From the NCBI RefSeq assembly GCF_949628265.1, contig NC_088786.1, forward strand, positions 13,888,001 to 13,952,000: DNA of 64,000 nt, written 5' to 3'. Positions within the stretch are counted from its first letter, which is position 1. Every line of letters starts with the position of its first letter. The position numbers and the translations under genes were made by a program. Below are positions 5,756 to 27,482 of the stretch, one piece after another. The DNA comes from Cloeon dipterum. Taxonomy: Eukaryota > Arthropoda > Insecta > Ephemeroptera > Baetidae. Below the pieces are notes generated by a model. It made no database searches. It saw only the letters and a list, made by a program, of their open reading frames with translations, and was not told where the DNA came from.

Positions 5756-6606
5756 ATGAAGTTTTTAGCTGCTGCTGCTCTCGTAGTTTTGATTTTCTGT
5801 TCGCTTGGGGACGGCAAAACTTGCAAAAGTGGTGTCAAAATCCAGCTGGATGGTGCAGTTATTATTGACCAAGGGACTGGAGCACTGTTGCATAATTCCA
5901 CGAGATACGAAAAAAACGAGTTCGTCCAAAACGACAGCAAGTTTTATTTCTGTCCATGCAACAGAAAATCGTGCACCAGACTTTGTACCAAAGGTTAAGT
6001 GGCAAAATCTGTAGTGTTATTAAATGATAATTTTTAAAACGCCTATGTTGGTAAAATGCTTAAATCCATTTTTCTTTCAACAGAGTTGGCACAAAAAGCT
6101 AATTTGACGGTACCAACAAAAGGAGCAACTTTAAACGTCAGCAGCAACGGGAACAAATCTGAAATCGTCAACCTGTTCGAGTGTTTCCATGTGCTGCCTG
6201 AAGGAGATTGCTGGTCGGCGCATTTACTAGACATCGAGGAGGACACATACCAAATTTTAGCCAATGGTTCCATTTATTTTATAAATGGAATTGAAGGATA
6301 CCCATCAATTTTCGATATGCACAACTACTGTCTACTGAGTGACGTAAGGCTCTGTTATATTTAAAACTCGATTGAGGATGACCAAGACATGTGACTTTAA
6401 AATTAAAGGGATCGTCGATTGCGTTAGGGTGCCTTGTCAAGGAGGATACTGAGATCGACGTTCAGTCTACAGAAGAGGCACTTAATGAGACGACAACGGA
6501 TGCAACGACAACGACCAAAACAACAAGCAAACCCAACGTGAGCGAGACAACTGAGAAGAAGCCCAAATTTTTCTATTGGTCAAAAACCGAATTGATTTAT
6601 TTTTAA
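5756..6606 (+). CDS. Secreted Methuselah-like ectodomain protein
   Basis: Three exons: 5756-5993, 6084-6343 and 6409-6606. Introns of 90 and 65 bases have GTTAAG...CAG and GTAAGG...AAG borders. The joined frame gives 231 residues. Residues 1-20 are a signal peptide (MKFLAAAALVVLIFCSLGDG). The Cys pattern FCPCNRKSCTRLCTKG near residues 66-81 matches the Methuselah ectodomain signature (C-x-C-x4-C-x-R-x-C). Downstream, LANGSIYF and NYCLLSD correspond to the family's F-E-N-G-T-F-F and Y-C-L-x-H blocks. The Methuselah family normally continues into seven membrane helices. Here the protein ends in a Thr-rich segment (TTTDATTTTKTTSK) and a short tail with no membrane span. Stop TAA at 6604-6606 is followed by AATAAA at 6650, which supports a complete short gene. 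A GTGAGC at 6538 could instead be a donor to distant 7TM exons, but none was seen downstream in this window. The exact acceptor of exon 3 is inferred from frame. Confidence 0.7.
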
Positions 6607-6649: not shown

Positions 6650-6655
6650 AATAAA
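6650..6655 (+). terminator. Poly(A) signal of Methuselah-like gene
   Basis: AATAAA lies 44 bases after the stop codon of the upstream gene, a normal spacing for a 3' end. It supports termination of the transcript without membrane-domain exons. Confidence 0.5.
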
Positions 6656-15666: not shown

Positions 15667-16184
15667 ATTCGGTGGCGGCCAACAGCAGCAGCTAATAATA
15701 ATCACATTGTAATTTATTCAATTAGATGCTGTGATCGAGATAGCCGTATGGCGCATTTGTATTATTTGCGCCGCTTCCTGCCGACCGACACAGCTCGCCC
15801 GTCCATCCATCCATCCACTCTCGTTTCGTCGCCCCGCGCGTCTCGACGTGTGGTGCATTTTCACTTTCGAATTTGCGACGCCGCTCACCGCCAGAGTGAC
15901 AATTGATAATTGTTTGCGAGACTCACAGCCTTCGTAGCAAGCAGGACCACACAGAGACTAAAATAATCGCATTTTGACATGCGATATCCTTGATTGCATT
16001 ATAAAATGGTCGTTATTTTAATGCTAAACTCTGAAGCAAAAACGATTTACAGTTGAAAACTGAGAAGGTAATACAAAAAAGTTTGCATGTGCTTTAAATA
16101 AACCATATACGTTAATCAATGATGATCGATTGATCTGTTTCTTCATATGTGCTATACAAACAACAAATTTCATTTTAAAAAGCA

Positions 16185-18103: not shown

Positions 18104-18779
18104 GATATTAAGTTCCTTAACAAGCTCTCTGAGGAAAAAATGGCCCACGCAGCGATCAACTGCTGCGGCAGAGAAAAATGGCACAAAACAAAAAAGCAGC
18201 TCATTCGTTTGGCATGCAGCGCGATGTGTCTGGGCCGGGTAATAAAATAGATAAGAGACTCGATTTTAATGCTGCGTGCCGGCCTGCATAAGTAGGAAAA
18301 AAGTACAGATACAATCTCTTTATTCATGAAATTATTCACGCCTACTAGAGAAAAGTTATCTGAAAAGCGTTTAGGAAACACGAATGTTACAGCTTTGATA
18401 AGCGGCAGCGCAGTTAAAAGAGTCACTGAATGTGCATGTTTTTATTTTTTGTTTTGCCTCCGCGCACAATTAAAAACGTATATTATGCTCTTTGTATTTA
18501 CGTGATTCACGTCCCGCGAACACGCTTAATATGCCGCGAGTTATCTGCCGAAAAGTGCGATACTGGCGCGTTTTTCCGCTGCTTGCTCTGCGCTCTCGCA
18601 CTACTTTGCGGTCTGTTGCGGTTGAATATTTTTGACGTTTTTATTGATAAGATAAGTTTTAAAATTGCTACAGCATGCATATCACAAGTTGAGAAGTGTT
18701 AAATTTTTAAATTCTATTTCGCCCATACCGGGATTTTGTTGATTAAAATCAATTTATATTTTCATAACTTCAAAATATG
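18104..18779. other. Non-coding stretch
   Basis: Mixed composition with a GC-richer patch at about 18,500-18,620. No supportable gene. Confidence 0.5.
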
Positions 18780-18865
18780 TTATAGCATACGTTTGGCTGG
18801 CGATAGTCTCCGCAGGGTCTGTAGGTCCCATCCTTTTTCAGGACGAGATGCAGCGCGGAAGCCCA
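18780..18865 (-). repeat. Left arm of inverted repeat flanking gypsy relic
   Basis: These 86 bases are the reverse complement of 19487-19572, with three mismatches seen by eye. The sequence corresponds to the beginning of a reverse-transcriptase domain read on the minus strand. Confidence 0.9.
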
Positions 18866-19572
18866 GTGCTGAGCCCCCAAAAGTCCACCAAACGTCTCTT
18901 CATTTATGACCCGCAAACTGACCGCACGTTTCTTGTGGACACCGGCGCAGAGGTTAGTGTCCTTCCTGCAAAGCTGCTTCCAAAAAGGTCCAGGACAACT
19001 GACCTGGTGCTCACTGCAGCAAACAACAATATAGTATTGACACGTACGGATTCATAACCCTCAACCTTACGTTTGGTTTATGGAGGAGATTTGAACACGT
19101 CGAGTTGCTGACGTCGACCGCCCAATATTAGGGGCTGAATTTTTGGCCAAGATGGCCGTGCACTTGGACGAGGGGACTCTTGTCGATAAGATAACCAACC
19201 TTTCGGTTGAAGGTATCGCCGAGCCCTCAAATTCACCCTGCTCTGTCAAAATGGTCGATTCGTCGAACGAATACTACAGCACGTTGAAGGACTTCCCTGA
19301 ACTTTTCAAACCACCGGATCTCAACCGACCTGTCAAACACAAGGCGATTCACCGAATTCCTACCACAGAAGGCTCTCCTCATCACGAAAAATTCCGTCGC
19401 CTCGCCCTAGACAAGCTAAAAATCGTCCGTCAGCTCTTCGAAGAAATGGAGCAGCGAGGAGAAGTACGGCGAGGGGAGAGTGACTATGGGCTTCCGCGCT
19501 GCATCTAGTCCTGAAAAAGGATGGGACCTACAGACCCTGCGAAGACTATCGCCAGCCAAACGTACGCTATAA
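18866..19572 (+). mobile_element. Decayed Ty3/gypsy-type pol fragment (protease to start of RT)
   Basis: The plus strand encodes an aspartic protease with the active-site sequence FLVDTGAEVSVLPA near 18930. The linker and the beginning of the reverse-transcriptase domain follow (for example KFRRLALDKLKIVRQLFEEM near 19400). This order is that of the Ty3/gypsy pol polyprotein. The frame is broken at several points: a stop after the protease, frame changes around 19090-19130, and one near 19495. No gag, integrase or LTR was found nearby. It is a non-functional relic of under 0.8 kb. Confidence 0.85.
19487..19572 (+). repeat. Right arm of inverted repeat flanking gypsy relic
   Basis: The sense copy of the RT start region, matching 18780-18865 in inverted orientation over 86 bases. 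Both arms carry the same frame-disrupting extra bases, so the arms were duplicated after that lesion arose, or were later homogenised. Confidence 0.9.
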
Positions 19573-22238: not shown

Positions 22239-24804
22239 TTATTTTTGCTCACTGTCATCACTCTGTATGGTGATTCGCAGTTTGCTGCTAGCAACAGAAA
22301 CAGTTTGTTCTGAATTATTAGAGTTAATAAACGAGACTGATGCCAAAAGGTCGCGGTTGTTTTTAAACGTGGCCAGCCAGAATGCTCTTGCTTTTTTGTT
22401 TAAGGCAACCATGTATATAAAGTAAGTCACTCCTTGGAATGTAACTGTCAAATTAAAAAGTACAGTAAAAACTTCCTGCAGCGCTTCTATATACTGACAT
22501 AGGGCGAAAATCCAACTCAGACCTAACAAGACGAATAGGAAGAACAAAAGTTTGCACACTTGTATATTTTTGGTTGTGCTGCTCTCATGCTTCCGTGGAC
22601 TGTCGTTTGTGCCCATGAATATGTTTTTCAAGATAAGACAAAAGATAACCAAGTTAACCAACATTATGGTGACTACAGGAGCGAGAATCGTGACGAAGAA
22701 AGTGACATCTTGAGGCAGACAGAGTGGCGGGCCGTGATACTCATCCCAATGGGTGGAAATGACGATCAGTAGGCCAGGCACCAAGGGGCAGCCCCACGCG
22801 ACCATCGAAGACTTTGAAAAAAGTTTCGGCACGCGGTGGGCAATAACCTGAACCAAGCGCTTGTACTGCAGATAGCCGGCCACCAGCATCCAGAAGAAAT
22901 TCACCAGAATCGCGTAGTGCAAGAAAAAACCCATGAAGATGCAACCGACTCTGTTTTCTTTTTGGACATCAGCAGCCAAGGATAAGAGGAACATGACCAT
23001 CAAAAAGGCCAAACTGATGGCCATTTGCAGCAGAATCTTTTGACCTGCACCCTTCCGCCACTGTGGAGAGCCGGCAGCAGTGACAAAAACGCCGCTTAGT
23101 CCCAGCAAAGAGATGCTGCAGCCAACGATGCTGAGTACTTCGAACGGTTTCGATTCTGAATTGACATCTTCATGGCCCATCAAAAGCAGGCTGCCAAAGT
23201 GCGTTAGGTGGTAGCAAATACACTCATCTATGAATCCATCGCTGACAGTGTAGGATATGTTGTGGTGACACCCCTCATTAGACCAGTTTCCGTTTCCTTC
23301 GTTTGCCTCGTAATCCCAATAAACACATTGCCCAGGTTCTAGAAAAGGATAAAAAATAAGAAATATCGAACAGAAATTTCTTCTTAAAGCTGCGCAAAAA
23401 TTATGCCCTTATCTCTTTCTACCAAATTACACATTTTTTATTTTGATCAGAGCCCATTTGAAGCATATAAATTCTCCAACTGACTCTTATAACTAGAGAT
23501 TTTTATTCAATTAAGTTACGAAGATTTACCTGGAAAGTTTTTGCTTCTATTGAACCACAGAATGATCGGCTGTGATAAGTTTTTCACATCGATTATCTTT
23601 TGCGTCGAATTTCCAACGGTGACACTAATGACGCTTGATATAAAGTTGGGTTGAAACAGCACTTGCGAGTCCTCTATCAAAATAGCATTCAGCTTGAGTG
23701 ACTGATCTTCTAGTAACTCTCCAGGTAGTTTTAATCCAAGGCTAACATTGAGTCATGAATTTATTTTAGGATTGCAGTTATTTTAATCGCTCACCTTAAT
23801 TTTGGAGTGAAAATATTCGCTTCAGATGTTTCATTCTGGATAAGAGACAATCCTTGGTTTTGTGACCCTCTCTCAAGGAATAATCCAAGTGCTTTGCTCT
23901 CAGCTATATTTACTATCCCTATTGCAATATTCTTGGCCACAACTTCATAGGTACTGTTTTTTATGTCTAAATTGGCGATTGTCAAATCCAAATTGTCCAA
24001 GAGTTCTTTCCTCTCCGATGGCGTCCATTTCTTCACGTCGACGTCAGTAGTCAAATAATCAATGTTCTTGATTTCCTTGGTCAACGTTTCTGGATCCGTT
24101 ATATTTGTGATAGTTTGTGAATAGTTCTGAACGCCATATAAAGTCTCAATAAAATAACCAGTGAAATAATAACCAACACATTTAGCTATTTTGTAACCGT
24201 TCTGATGTGTCTCATTCCATTGAAGTGGAACATTATCAGCAACTTGACAAAATTTTACATTTCTTATCCAAGCAATGCTTTTCTTGTTAAAGTTTTCCAT
24301 TCGGCCGAGGTCCTGCTTGAGATAATTTAAATACTTTTTATACTCAGACACAGTGATTTTTGATTTTTCCTTTAAAAACTTGGATGTGAAATGAACAATA
24401 TTCATATCATTTGCGACTTGCTTTGCAGTAAAATGTTCTGAATGAAATTTCGCAAAATCAAATAAAGGTGAGAATTTGGCAACATAATATAGACGATCCA
24501 TTGCTTTGAGAATTTCCGAAACGTTTTTACTATCTGGATAGTGCACGTCACATAAAATCCACCCTACAGGCTGATCATATAGCAATTGAACAAAACATTT
24601 CTGCTTCATATTGCAATCCATTGATGTGAAATCTTTTGTGTCTCTTTTGTTTTCATATTCAGAAAACTTGCAAGTGATGTTAGGCCTCAGGACCCCTTTG
24701 CCATAAACGTGAAGAACAATTATTGTACCGTTCAATGGTTCCAAGTTCACTTGCACTCCTTTCACCATGACGAAATATGCAGCAAAAACACACCAGAAAT
24801 ACAT
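22239..24804 (-). CDS. Adhesion-type GPCR (GPS + 7TM), frameshifted as given
   Basis: Three minus-strand exons: 24804-23795, 23741-23531 and 23338-22239, with GT-AG introns of 53 and 192 bases. Start ATG at 24804 opens a signal peptide (MYFWCVFAAYFVMVKG). About 390 residues of ectodomain with N-glycosylation sequons follow. Exon 3 opens with a canonical GPS: CVYW, NWSNEGC, ECICYHLTHF. The cleavage tripeptide HLT sits at 23210-23202. Seven hydrophobic helices follow, from FEVLSIVGCSISLLGLSGVF to the helix ending MVALNKKARAFW, plus a Ser-rich cytoplasmic tail. Family role: signal-transducing cell-surface receptor, self-cleaved at the GPS. Exon 2 reads as a typical pre-GPS GAIN strand region, but its two halves are in different frames. 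One A is missing (minus sense) at the run 23581-23584. Without it the frame stops in exon 3. With one more base the coding length is exactly 774 codons. Assembly error or true lesion cannot be separated here. Confidence 0.9.
23581..23584 (-). other. One-base frameshift in GPCR exon 2
   Basis: On the minus strand the exon reads ...GATGTGAAAACTTATCAC. Before this point the sensible frame is VGNSTQKIIDVK. After it the sensible frame, shifted by one base, is LSQPIILWFNRSKNF and joins the GPS exon in phase. The four-base homopolymer would need five bases. The other two frames of each half contain stops or nonsense. Confidence 0.8.
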
Positions 24805-24845
24805 TGTGCTGAGTGTTGAAGTATATTCACCAAAATCCTTCAAGC

Positions 24846-24851
24846 AACTGA
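24846..24851 (-). promoter_or_regulatory. Initiator-like TCAGTT before the GPCR gene
   Basis: On the minus strand TCAGTT has its A at 24849, giving a 45-base leader to the ATG at 24804. No TATA box or downstream promoter element was convincing. The same hexamer precedes the Methuselah-like gene. Confidence 0.35.
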
Positions 24852-27482
24852 GTGTAAAATGAAGTTAAATTGTAAGACCACATATTGTCGATGATAAAAA
24901 ACCACAGCGAGTAAATTTCATACTCTCAGTGGCACTGCATAGACTGCTATAAAGAGGAAAGGGAGTTTTAATAGCACATATAGAAGAAATTTAAAACGTT
25001 CAGCAACCTTTAGCTTGGAGTCCTCTTTCTAAATTATTAATTTAATTAGTTTTTGTCTCACTGTAGTGTCTCTTCTTGCAGACTTTTTGTTCTGATAGAA
25101 GGTATAATATAAATGAATGACTGGAAAACAAAGAAACATAATTTTGTAATGAAGACAGAAAATATTTTTGCGTTTTTCAGAAATGTTTCCAAATAAAGAT
25201 GCCCATTGAAAATAAATATTTAAATGCTACATGATAAGTTGGTTTTCAACTGTCAACCAATCGGGAAGAATAATTCAATATAAATTAATGAATGCCAAAT
25301 AATCAAATGCTTATTCTCTTCATTACAAAGTGGGAAGATCGTGAACACAAAGAAAAATAGAAGCCTTAATGCAGACATAATGTTGTGCTTCGTCTTAATC
25401 AAAGCGTGGCCAAATTAACTTTCCTCGGACATATTACCTTTTTAAGTAATTACTGAAATATACGCGTTGAGAGGTGGTAACAATCACTTGTGCTGAATTT
25501 AAGAAAGTATTCTTGCAACCTATGTTCTTTGGTCAACCGAGAGAGGAACTCCAATATTTTCAGAGTATGAGTGGATTGATAGCGACGAAGGTGATCGTGG
25601 TTGCACGCGCACAAACAATGTGTGGTGGAGGGTGGCTCAATTTATTCACGCGCCGATGGCAATCGCTGGCGGGAACTGTTAAAAATTACAAATCTGCGGT
25701 GGCACTTTGGCACATTCCGCGAATATCTCGCGAGATCCATCATCGCGATTTATGCCGGGCTGTCTCATTAAATTTGCGCGGCACCCGAGATAAAATGCAA
25801 ATGGATAATGAAAAATGCGCTCGCGCCGCGCACCGTCGCGGAAATTTATTTTGCTCGTTAGCCGACGTGTCCCGCGCAGGAGAGAAGCAAAGCAAAGAAT
25901 GCCGAAATAATAAACGAGAGAAGATGAGACCTCCATTTTAATATTTAGCATCCATTGTGTCTGGGCCAACAATGGGGGGCTAAATTTTGCCAATTTTTTC
26001 GCGTCGTGTACGTATTCGGGTGTCATTTTAACAAGATAAACACCGCTCGGGTGTCTCGGCTTTTGTTTTTTCCCACAAGATGCGTGCGTGAAGCGACTAA
26101 CCGCGGCGCGATTGCGATCGCTGAAAGCAGAGAAGACTGTCGTAGAGGAAGGCTCACAATAGTTATTTTGAATGTGTACACGCCGAGCAGCGGCCGCCGT
26201 TTATTATTTTATTTATTTTTCCAGCATTATAAGCGGCCGAATTATTTATGGGACCAGTGCAATTTCGGCGCTATCTCGCGAATAATTTTCCCTATGAAAT
26301 ATTAACGTGTTGCCTTTTCAACAAGTTTCGCTGCCGCGCCAAGTGAGAAATAATTCTTGTTTTCCTCTCTCCCTCGACGCATTCAATTAGCCGCTTGCAT
26401 TATTTTTGCTCGCTTTAACAATGGACCAATGCCGTGTTCGCGGCATTATTCTTCTCTCGCGCCTGCTGCTTTTCGGCTTCACTCACCAACTCTGATTTTT
26501 TTGCAGTGTCACTGACACCAAACGAACAAAAATAAATCACATTAACGATATTTTTGTCATGGCTATCACCATATTTTCTGTAATAATGTAACGTTTCACT
26601 ATGAGCCTAATTATGATTGTAGATGTAAGTTCTGTGGCGAGACTTGTGAAAAATATCATACATATCCAAAAGTGTACAGCAAGAAAACTTACTTTGAGAG
26701 AAGCAGCGAAAATTTGTAAAAATTGATTAACCTTTACATGTAGAATGTTGCACGCATATTTTGCGTTTAATAAACCATTAATTAATTAATTAACGATATT
26801 TTTAAAGCGTTTGCAAGTGAGTTAAAATGGGGAGTCTTTTTATTTACAAATTAAATGGAGTAAAATGTCGGTTGTTTTTAGTTTCTGATGTAGTCCGTCG
26901 AAACCATCGCAGCTTTTGTCCTTACTGGTACTTCCTTATTATGCATAAACTTGATTTTAATCTACCCGCGCCGTTGCAAATTTGAACCTTTGTTCCATCA
27001 GAGTAGCGATGACAGTAATTTTAAACCAACAATAACCCAAAAATCCTGGACCTTGGTCCTAGATCCAATGTCGTTCTCTTAGACTGATACAATTATTTGT
27101 TTTTTATAGCACTTTCTTTGGAACAGGCTCTGATTGACCATAGCGCGAAAGGCTAAGATCGAATTCGAATTTTTACGCATAATAAAAAAGTAAAGGAATC
27201 GGTGGGTCCATTGAGGGGTTTGGAGTTTTGAATGACTGATTGAAATAATGTAGACTCCTGTCAGGGTTTTACATGACGATATTACGATCGCATTAAATAA
27301 TATTGACTCCTATTGAATTGCCAAAATAAAGCCAAGTTGGGCTTACTACATATATTTTCATGAGATAAAATTAACTCATTTTGCAAAAATGAGTTAATTT
27401 TGCTAGAAAATGTTTTGTGAAAATTAGAATTATCATCATGACAAGTTCTTTGCGTTTTGACTGTATTATAAAAAGGGCCCAT
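24852..27482. other. Non-coding stretch with GC-rich block
   Basis: The GC-richer block at about 25,540-26,500 has long overlapping open frames on both strands (up to 155 codons), with no domain and no biased codon pattern, so I treat them as chance. A plus-strand 41-codon frame at 26601-26726 ends in KLTLREAAKICKN, slightly reminiscent of a helix-turn-helix start, but it is too short to call. Confidence 0.5.

What the first reader, a model, noticed from the sequence alone, without database searches (positions are those of the whole stretch)
5756..6606. Ectodomain-only Methuselah-like protein
The cysteine signature and NG(S/T) block of the Methuselah ectodomain are present behind a signal peptide. 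The protein then ends in a Thr-rich stalk without any 7TM domain, with a stop and a well-placed AATAAA. A soluble ectodomain could act as a ligand sink or be an ancestral secreted module. The family assignment is from known Methuselah features; the soluble role is inference.
Basis: partly seen in the sequence, partly recalled or inferred. Interest (0 to 1): 0.75.

Follow-up and report, generated by a model that had tools for sequence, protein, structure and literature searches.

The report
Secreted Methuselah-like ectodomain without 7TM
A small arthropod gene appears to encode only the outer part of a Methuselah-like receptor, with a signal peptide and no membrane segments, while the relatives found in the same genome have the membrane part, so it is probably a receptor that lost its membrane half and is now secreted.

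Summary
Confirmed: window 5756-6606 (+) holds an intact three-exon gene for a 231-residue protein: signal peptide, Methuselah-like ectodomain, Thr-rich tail, stop, AATAAA at 6650. It shares intron positions with the genome's Methuselah-like receptors. The protein itself has no Pfam match; the family label rests on relatives. It matches its nearest paralogues at E 8.9e-9, and 8 of 11 aligned proteins match Methuselah_N at E up to 1 (best 3.3e-4; the candidate is one of the three that do not). Of 37 ectodomain genes found in this 190-Mb genome, 36 have a 7TM region beside them; this one alone does not. The searches found no Methuselah-type 7TM exon in the window, and the nearest on the contig lies about 4.3 Mb away. 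In relatives TM1 sits in the same exon as the last ectodomain cysteine; here that exon keeps the cysteine but continues as a hydrophilic tail. Most likely a secreted protein derived from a receptor by loss of its membrane half, rather than an ancestral secreted module. A ligand-sink role is plausible but untested; expression, selection and fold were not tested. The literature searches made showed no such gene. New variant of a known kind, moderate interest.

The parts
5756..5993 (+). exon 1: signal peptide (residues about 1-20), first half of ectodomain, CPCNRKSCTRLC block (5951-5986)
   Evidence: ORF and splice enumeration; aligned with 10 paralogues
5994..6083 (+). intron 1, 90 nt, phase 1, AAG|GTTAAG ... 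CAACAG|AGT
   Evidence: GT donor and AG acceptor at this place in 15 of 15 other spliced paralogue models (the phase was set in the script, the GT and AG are read from the DNA)
6084..6343 (+). exon 2: second half of ectodomain, with FECFHV (extra Cys113 at 6182-6184), ILANGS block (6254-6271) and NYC motif
   Evidence: genome-wide E 8.9e-9 to C2:31670596-31670865
6344..6408 (+). intron 2, 65 nt, phase 0, GAC|GTAAGG ... TTAAAG|GGA; acceptor tract is A-rich
   Evidence: In 11 of 15 paralogue models both borders are GT and AG at the chosen anchors; in the other 4 one border lies 3 or 6 nt away, still in phase 0
6409..6606 (+). exon 3: last ectodomain cysteine (C174, 6430-6432), then hydrophilic Thr/Ser-rich tail (about 6484-6561) and stop; TM1 lies at this place in the 15 spliced paralogues
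   Evidence: no hydrophobic stretch in this ORF at the threshold used (Kyte-Doolittle, 19 residues, 1.8)
6650..6655 (+). AATAAA polyadenylation-type signal, 44 nt after the last stop base
   Evidence: and sequence

Best explanation
The gene is a derived relative of the genome's Methuselah-like receptors that lost its seven-helix half. It now makes a soluble, N-glycosylated ectodomain with a probably O-glycosylated Thr-rich tail. It most likely acts outside the cell by binding the ligand of its sister receptors (nearest: the three tandem 7TM genes at C2:31.67 Mb), so lowering or shaping their signalling as a sink or carrier. An odd cysteine (C113) could link it into disulfide dimers. Shown: an open gene structure, homology, no 7TM found nearby, and that it is the only such copy of the 37 found. 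Inferred: expression, secretion, glycosylation, ligand binding, sink role, dimer. Estimates: ectodomain-only secreted product about 0.85; ligand sink or carrier given that, about 0.5.
For: Open three-exon frame with intron places shared with 15 spliced paralogues. Sister to C2_31670/C2_31674 with 100/99 support in a tree of 16 rows. 36 of 37 ectodomain genes have a 7TM beside them: 35 by search and one, C3:28972, by reading hydrophobic ORFs in L061. No 7TM ORF of the sister receptors matches the window: of 63 gene-strand ORFs of L057, five match the candidate's ectodomain exons and no other match is below E 0.01. About 14 stops would be expected in 231 random codons of this composition, none is present, and three receptor paralogues have longer branches than the candidate's 0.94, which argues against a long-decaying pseudogene. 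A soluble GPCR ectodomain that absorbs ligand is reported for Lgr4-ED (PMC4154783, abstract and outline seen).
Against: No transcript evidence. The acceptor of intron 2 is A-rich and 18 splice combinations are open. No related species could be compared here, so selection on the tail is untested and the loss could be recent. The candidate itself does not match Methuselah_N, most relatives match it only weakly, and neither the single protein nor the A1 profile found a Methuselah chain in the PDB. No ligand is known to me for any receptor of this clade.
Confidence: 0.55

Rival explanations
1. A recently truncated, non-functional receptor copy: the 7TM half was deleted and the remaining ORF has not yet decayed.
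For: Only copy without 7TM of 37 found; the tail is simple and Thr-rich; no expression or cross-species data.
Against: No trace of 7TM exons in the window; signal peptide, splice sites, stop and AATAAA all in order; the tail is an open 57-codon stretch.
Confidence: 0.2
2. A secreted protein that kept the fold but changed its job, for example a structural, chemosensory or immune extracellular protein not tied to receptor ligands; the Thr-rich tail would act as a mucin-like segment.
For: The nearest relatives are only 29-31% identical over the aligned rows; a new tail and an extra cysteine.
Against: All 8 cysteines shared by most rows and the ILANGS block are kept, as if the ectodomain surface still matters.
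Confidence: 0.2
3. A full receptor whose 7TM exons are missed: very far downstream, or lost in an assembly error.
For: A donor-like GTGAGC at 6538; the genome searches score only the best candidates.
Against: The 57 kb downstream in the window gave no Methuselah-type 7TM exon, while the same queries find 7TM exons in L057-L059; the nearest such places found on contig C1 are at 18.2 Mb, about 4.3 Mb away. In the 15 spliced paralogues TM1 is in the same exon as the last cysteine, with no intron between.
Confidence: 0.05

Closest known systems
Methuselah/Methuselah-like GPCRs (class B3), ectodomain family Methuselah_N PF06652
   Same: Homologous ectodomain: conserved cysteines, CPC..C.R.C block and NG(S/T) block; intron places shared with the genome's own 7TM members
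   Different: No 7TM; Thr-rich hydrophilic tail; 9 cysteines in the mature protein; not detected by PF06652 on its own
Three 7TM receptors at C2:31.67 Mb of the same genome (L057)
   Same: Two of them placed in the tree as sister clade, 100/99 support; 37.8% identity over 156 aligned columns to C2_31670
   Different: They keep TM1 and further 7TM exons; C2_31670 and C2_31674 lack two ectodomain cysteines that the candidate has
Soluble GPCR ectodomains such as Lgr4-ED (PMC4154783)
   Same: Ectodomain-only secreted form of a GPCR, reported as a ligand-absorbing antagonist (abstract)
   Different: Lgr4-ED is a splice variant of the receptor gene; here a separate gene has no 7TM. Its ectodomain is leucine-rich repeats, unlike Methuselah's (repeats named in the abstract; contrast recalled)

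Membership tests
Methuselah/Methuselah-like GPCR | Ectodomain homologous to Methuselah_N | tested here: met
   Only by way of relatives: candidate to C2:31.67 exon 2 E 8.9e-9; C2_31670 to PF06652 E 4.2e-4, 20.8 bits, just under the 21.5 cut-off; 8 of 11 A1 members match at E up to 1, best 3.3e-4. Of 6 relatives, 1 is over the cut-off (the C4:5301 ORF), 1 just under, 3 weak at E 0.08-0.17, 1 has none
Methuselah/Methuselah-like GPCR | Direct match of the protein itself to PF06652 | tested here: not met
   0 Pfam families at E up to 10; the genome search with PF06652 found one place, C4:5301492, not this one; neither the single sequence nor the A1 profile found a Methuselah chain in the PDB, although 1fjr and 2pzx are held
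Methuselah/Methuselah-like GPCR | Ten cysteines in the ectodomain (PMC4768249) | tested here: not met
   9 in the mature protein (10 in the precursor, one in the signal peptide): 8 shared with most rows of A1 plus C113
Methuselah/Methuselah-like GPCR | Seven-transmembrane domain | tested here: not met
Methuselah/Methuselah-like GPCR | Methuselah ectodomain fold | not tested
Soluble decoy receptor | Signal peptide, no membrane anchor | tested here: met
   The N-terminus is the only hydrophobic stretch of its exons at the threshold used; by Kyte-Doolittle scan, not by a signal-peptide or GPI predictor
Soluble decoy receptor | Binds the ligand of a membrane receptor and lowers its signalling | not testable with these tools
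   Needs binding and reporter assays

The most novel reading that the evidence does not exclude
A stand-alone, genome-encoded soluble antagonist evolved from a Methuselah-like receptor by loss of its 7TM, so that this receptor class has a dedicated decoy gene acting on the large expansion of sister receptors in the same animal.
Probability: 0.35. Interest if true: 0.7.

Novelty: new variant of a known kind. Interest (0 to 1): 0.5.

Why it matters
Ligands of most Methuselah-like receptors are unknown (recalled; the class is largely unstudied per PMC4768249). A natural soluble ectodomain of the clade would be a ready bait for ligand fishing, and would show that this lifespan-linked receptor class can evolve decoys by domain loss. 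It also bears on whether the ectodomain can serve without its 7TM.

Tried and rejected
The 7TM ORF in the window (22242-23408, -), the only window place in the 52 rows of the PF00002 genome search, was checked as a possible partner and rejected: it carries GPS and 7tm_2, lies on the opposite strand, and looks like an adhesion-type GPCR. The weak tblastn match at 9878-9726 (E 0.007, composition correction off) was rejected: opposite strand, with stops; it did not recur. The E 0.037 match at 15703-15843 comes from an ORF in another frame than the TM6-7 ORF there and was rejected. A blastn of L057 against the window at E 0.01 gave nothing, not even the ectodomain exons, so DNA-level traces would be too old to see. 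PDB matches of the single sequence were mostly antibody heavy chains, E 0.018 and above, rejected as chance; the Darcin match of the profile (E 0.39) likewise. The C1:20955896 match to the tail (E 6.5) was rejected as a low-complexity match.

Literature: search listings showed no report of an ectodomain-only Methuselah-like gene; most listings were capped (20 of 40, 20 of 216, 20 of 508, 1 of 1, 12 of 201, 5 of 5). Seen: PMC4768249 (parts 1 and 2 of 3), passages of PMC3655951, PMC12653341, PMC6341585, PMC8687355, PMC8660763 and PMC5083930, abstract and outline of PMC4154783. Only open-licence papers are held, so this is not proof of absence.

Full report
Observation. The reading at 5756-6606 is right. 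The frame needs two short introns (5994-6083 and 6344-6408) and then reads 231 residues to the stop at 6604-6606, with AATAAA at 6650. One search lists 18 open GT-AG combinations; this one fits the paralogues. The protein has a hydrophobic N-terminus, eight NxS/T sites, and cysteines at 15, 23, 66, 68, 73, 77, 113, 122, 162 and 174, of which C15 lies in the signal peptide. After C174 comes a hydrophilic Thr/Ser-rich tail with no hydrophobic stretch at the threshold used.

Identity. Pfam gives no family for the candidate and the genome search with PF06652 found only C4:5301492, so the label rests on relatives. Searching its own genome (190 Mb, 10 contigs) with the protein gives, apart from itself, a tandem trio at C2:31.67 Mb (exon 2 best E 8.9e-9, exon 1 best E 1.1e-5) and weaker matches in other clusters. 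Of the 11 proteins in A1, 8 match Methuselah_N at E up to 1, the best at 3.3e-4. C2_31670 matches at E 4.2e-4, just under the curated cut-off; three other relatives only at 0.08-0.17, one not at all, and one distant relative (C4:5301) clearly, over the cut-off. That C4 protein also matches the Drosophila Methuselah structures 2pzx and 1fjr (E 1.8e-7). Against 15 spliced ectodomains of the genome the candidate scores 99.8 bits at best; 500 shuffles reach 28.9 at most. Against this reading: neither the candidate nor the A1 profile found a Methuselah chain in the PDB.

Gene architecture. In the 15 other genes spliced, intron 1 follows the C-x-R-x-C block with GT and AG in 15 of 15. Intron 2 follows the last-but-one cysteine, with both borders as set in 11 of 15 and one border 3 or 6 nt away in 4, still phase 0. 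The phases were built into the script; the GT and AG were read from the DNA. In these 15 paralogues the next exon carries the last ectodomain cysteine and then a hydrophobic TM1. The candidate's exon 3 starts in the same phase and keeps that cysteine (C174), but a Thr-rich tail stands in place of TM1.

Is it the only one? Rows were merged into 37 ectodomain genes. 35 of 37 have a 7TM-family match within 6.5 kb downstream on the same strand; for 32 of these the nearest is under 900 bp, the others at 1032, 1517 and 2711 bp. Of the other two, C3:28972 has hydrophobic open frames like those of its neighbour gene by direct reading of L061. So 36 of 37 have a 7TM, and the candidate alone does not. 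These searches score only the best candidates, so 37 is a lower bound and further ectodomain-only copies cannot be excluded.

No hidden 7TM. TM pieces of the paralogues find 7TM exons in L057-L059 at E 1e-3 or better, but among the 30 best window rows none is a Methuselah-type exon; the best is the adhesion-type GPCR on the other strand near 22.4 kb. All 63 gene-strand ORFs of at least 40 codons from L057 were searched against the window at E 0.05: five match the candidate's ectodomain exons, one gives E 0.037 at 15.7 kb from another frame than the TM6-7 ORF, and no 7TM frame matches. On contig C1 the nearest place is at 18.2 Mb, about 4.3 Mb away.

Origin. In a tree of 16 ectodomains the candidate is sister to C2_31670 and C2_31674 with 100/99 support (the program names the candidate's branch among the long ones). 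Because its relatives are receptors that share its introns, loss of the 7TM is simpler than an ancestral secreted module. De Mendoza et al. (PMC4768249, parts 1 and 2 of 3) place the ectodomain as a domain acquired in arthropods within 7TM genes, which agrees.

Functional or dead? A frame free of stops where about 14 would be expected by chance, kept splice sites, the eight cysteines shared by most rows and a branch shorter than those of three receptors argue for long constraint, but some or most of it may date from before the 7TM was lost. The tail's openness is weaker evidence. No related species was available here for a dN/dS test.

Mechanism. Most likely the protein is secreted and binds what its sister receptors bind, acting as a sink or carrier; Lgr4-ED is a precedent for a soluble GPCR ectodomain that antagonises its receptor (PMC4154783, abstract). 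The unpaired ninth cysteine suggests a possible dimer. These steps are inference.

Membership. It is not a Methuselah-like GPCR, because the 7TM was looked for and not found, and the ten-cysteine rule and direct Pfam match also fail. It is a derived relative that keeps a Methuselah-like ectodomain.

Noticed in passing
window 22242-23408 (-) and 23794-24864 (-): Adhesion-type GPCR: GPS (E 5.2e-10) and 7tm_2 (E 1.4e-26) in one ORF; the upstream 357-aa ORF has no Pfam match at E up to 0.01 and may be its extracellular part.
   Followed up: partly
window 18743-19054 (+): Retroviral-type aspartyl protease fragment, just under the Pfam cut-off (E 0.0021, 18.8 bits), in a GC-richer stretch; probably a retroelement remnant.
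   Followed up: no
own genome, C1:18.2, C1:41.26, C2:6.55-6.64, C2:31.67, C2:35.54-35.59 Mb, and places on C3, C4, C5: Large expansion of Methuselah-like receptors: 37 ectodomain genes found, many in tandem arrays.
   Followed up: partly
L057 (C2:31.67 Mb), genes C2_31670 and C2_31674: Both receptors lack the first ectodomain cysteine and the first cysteine of the CPC block together, which hints that these two form a disulfide in relatives.
   Followed up: no
own genome C2:6634731-6634997 (+): A TM1 match with no ectodomain exon found beside it: possibly the reverse case, a receptor without ectodomain, or a missed exon.
   Followed up: no
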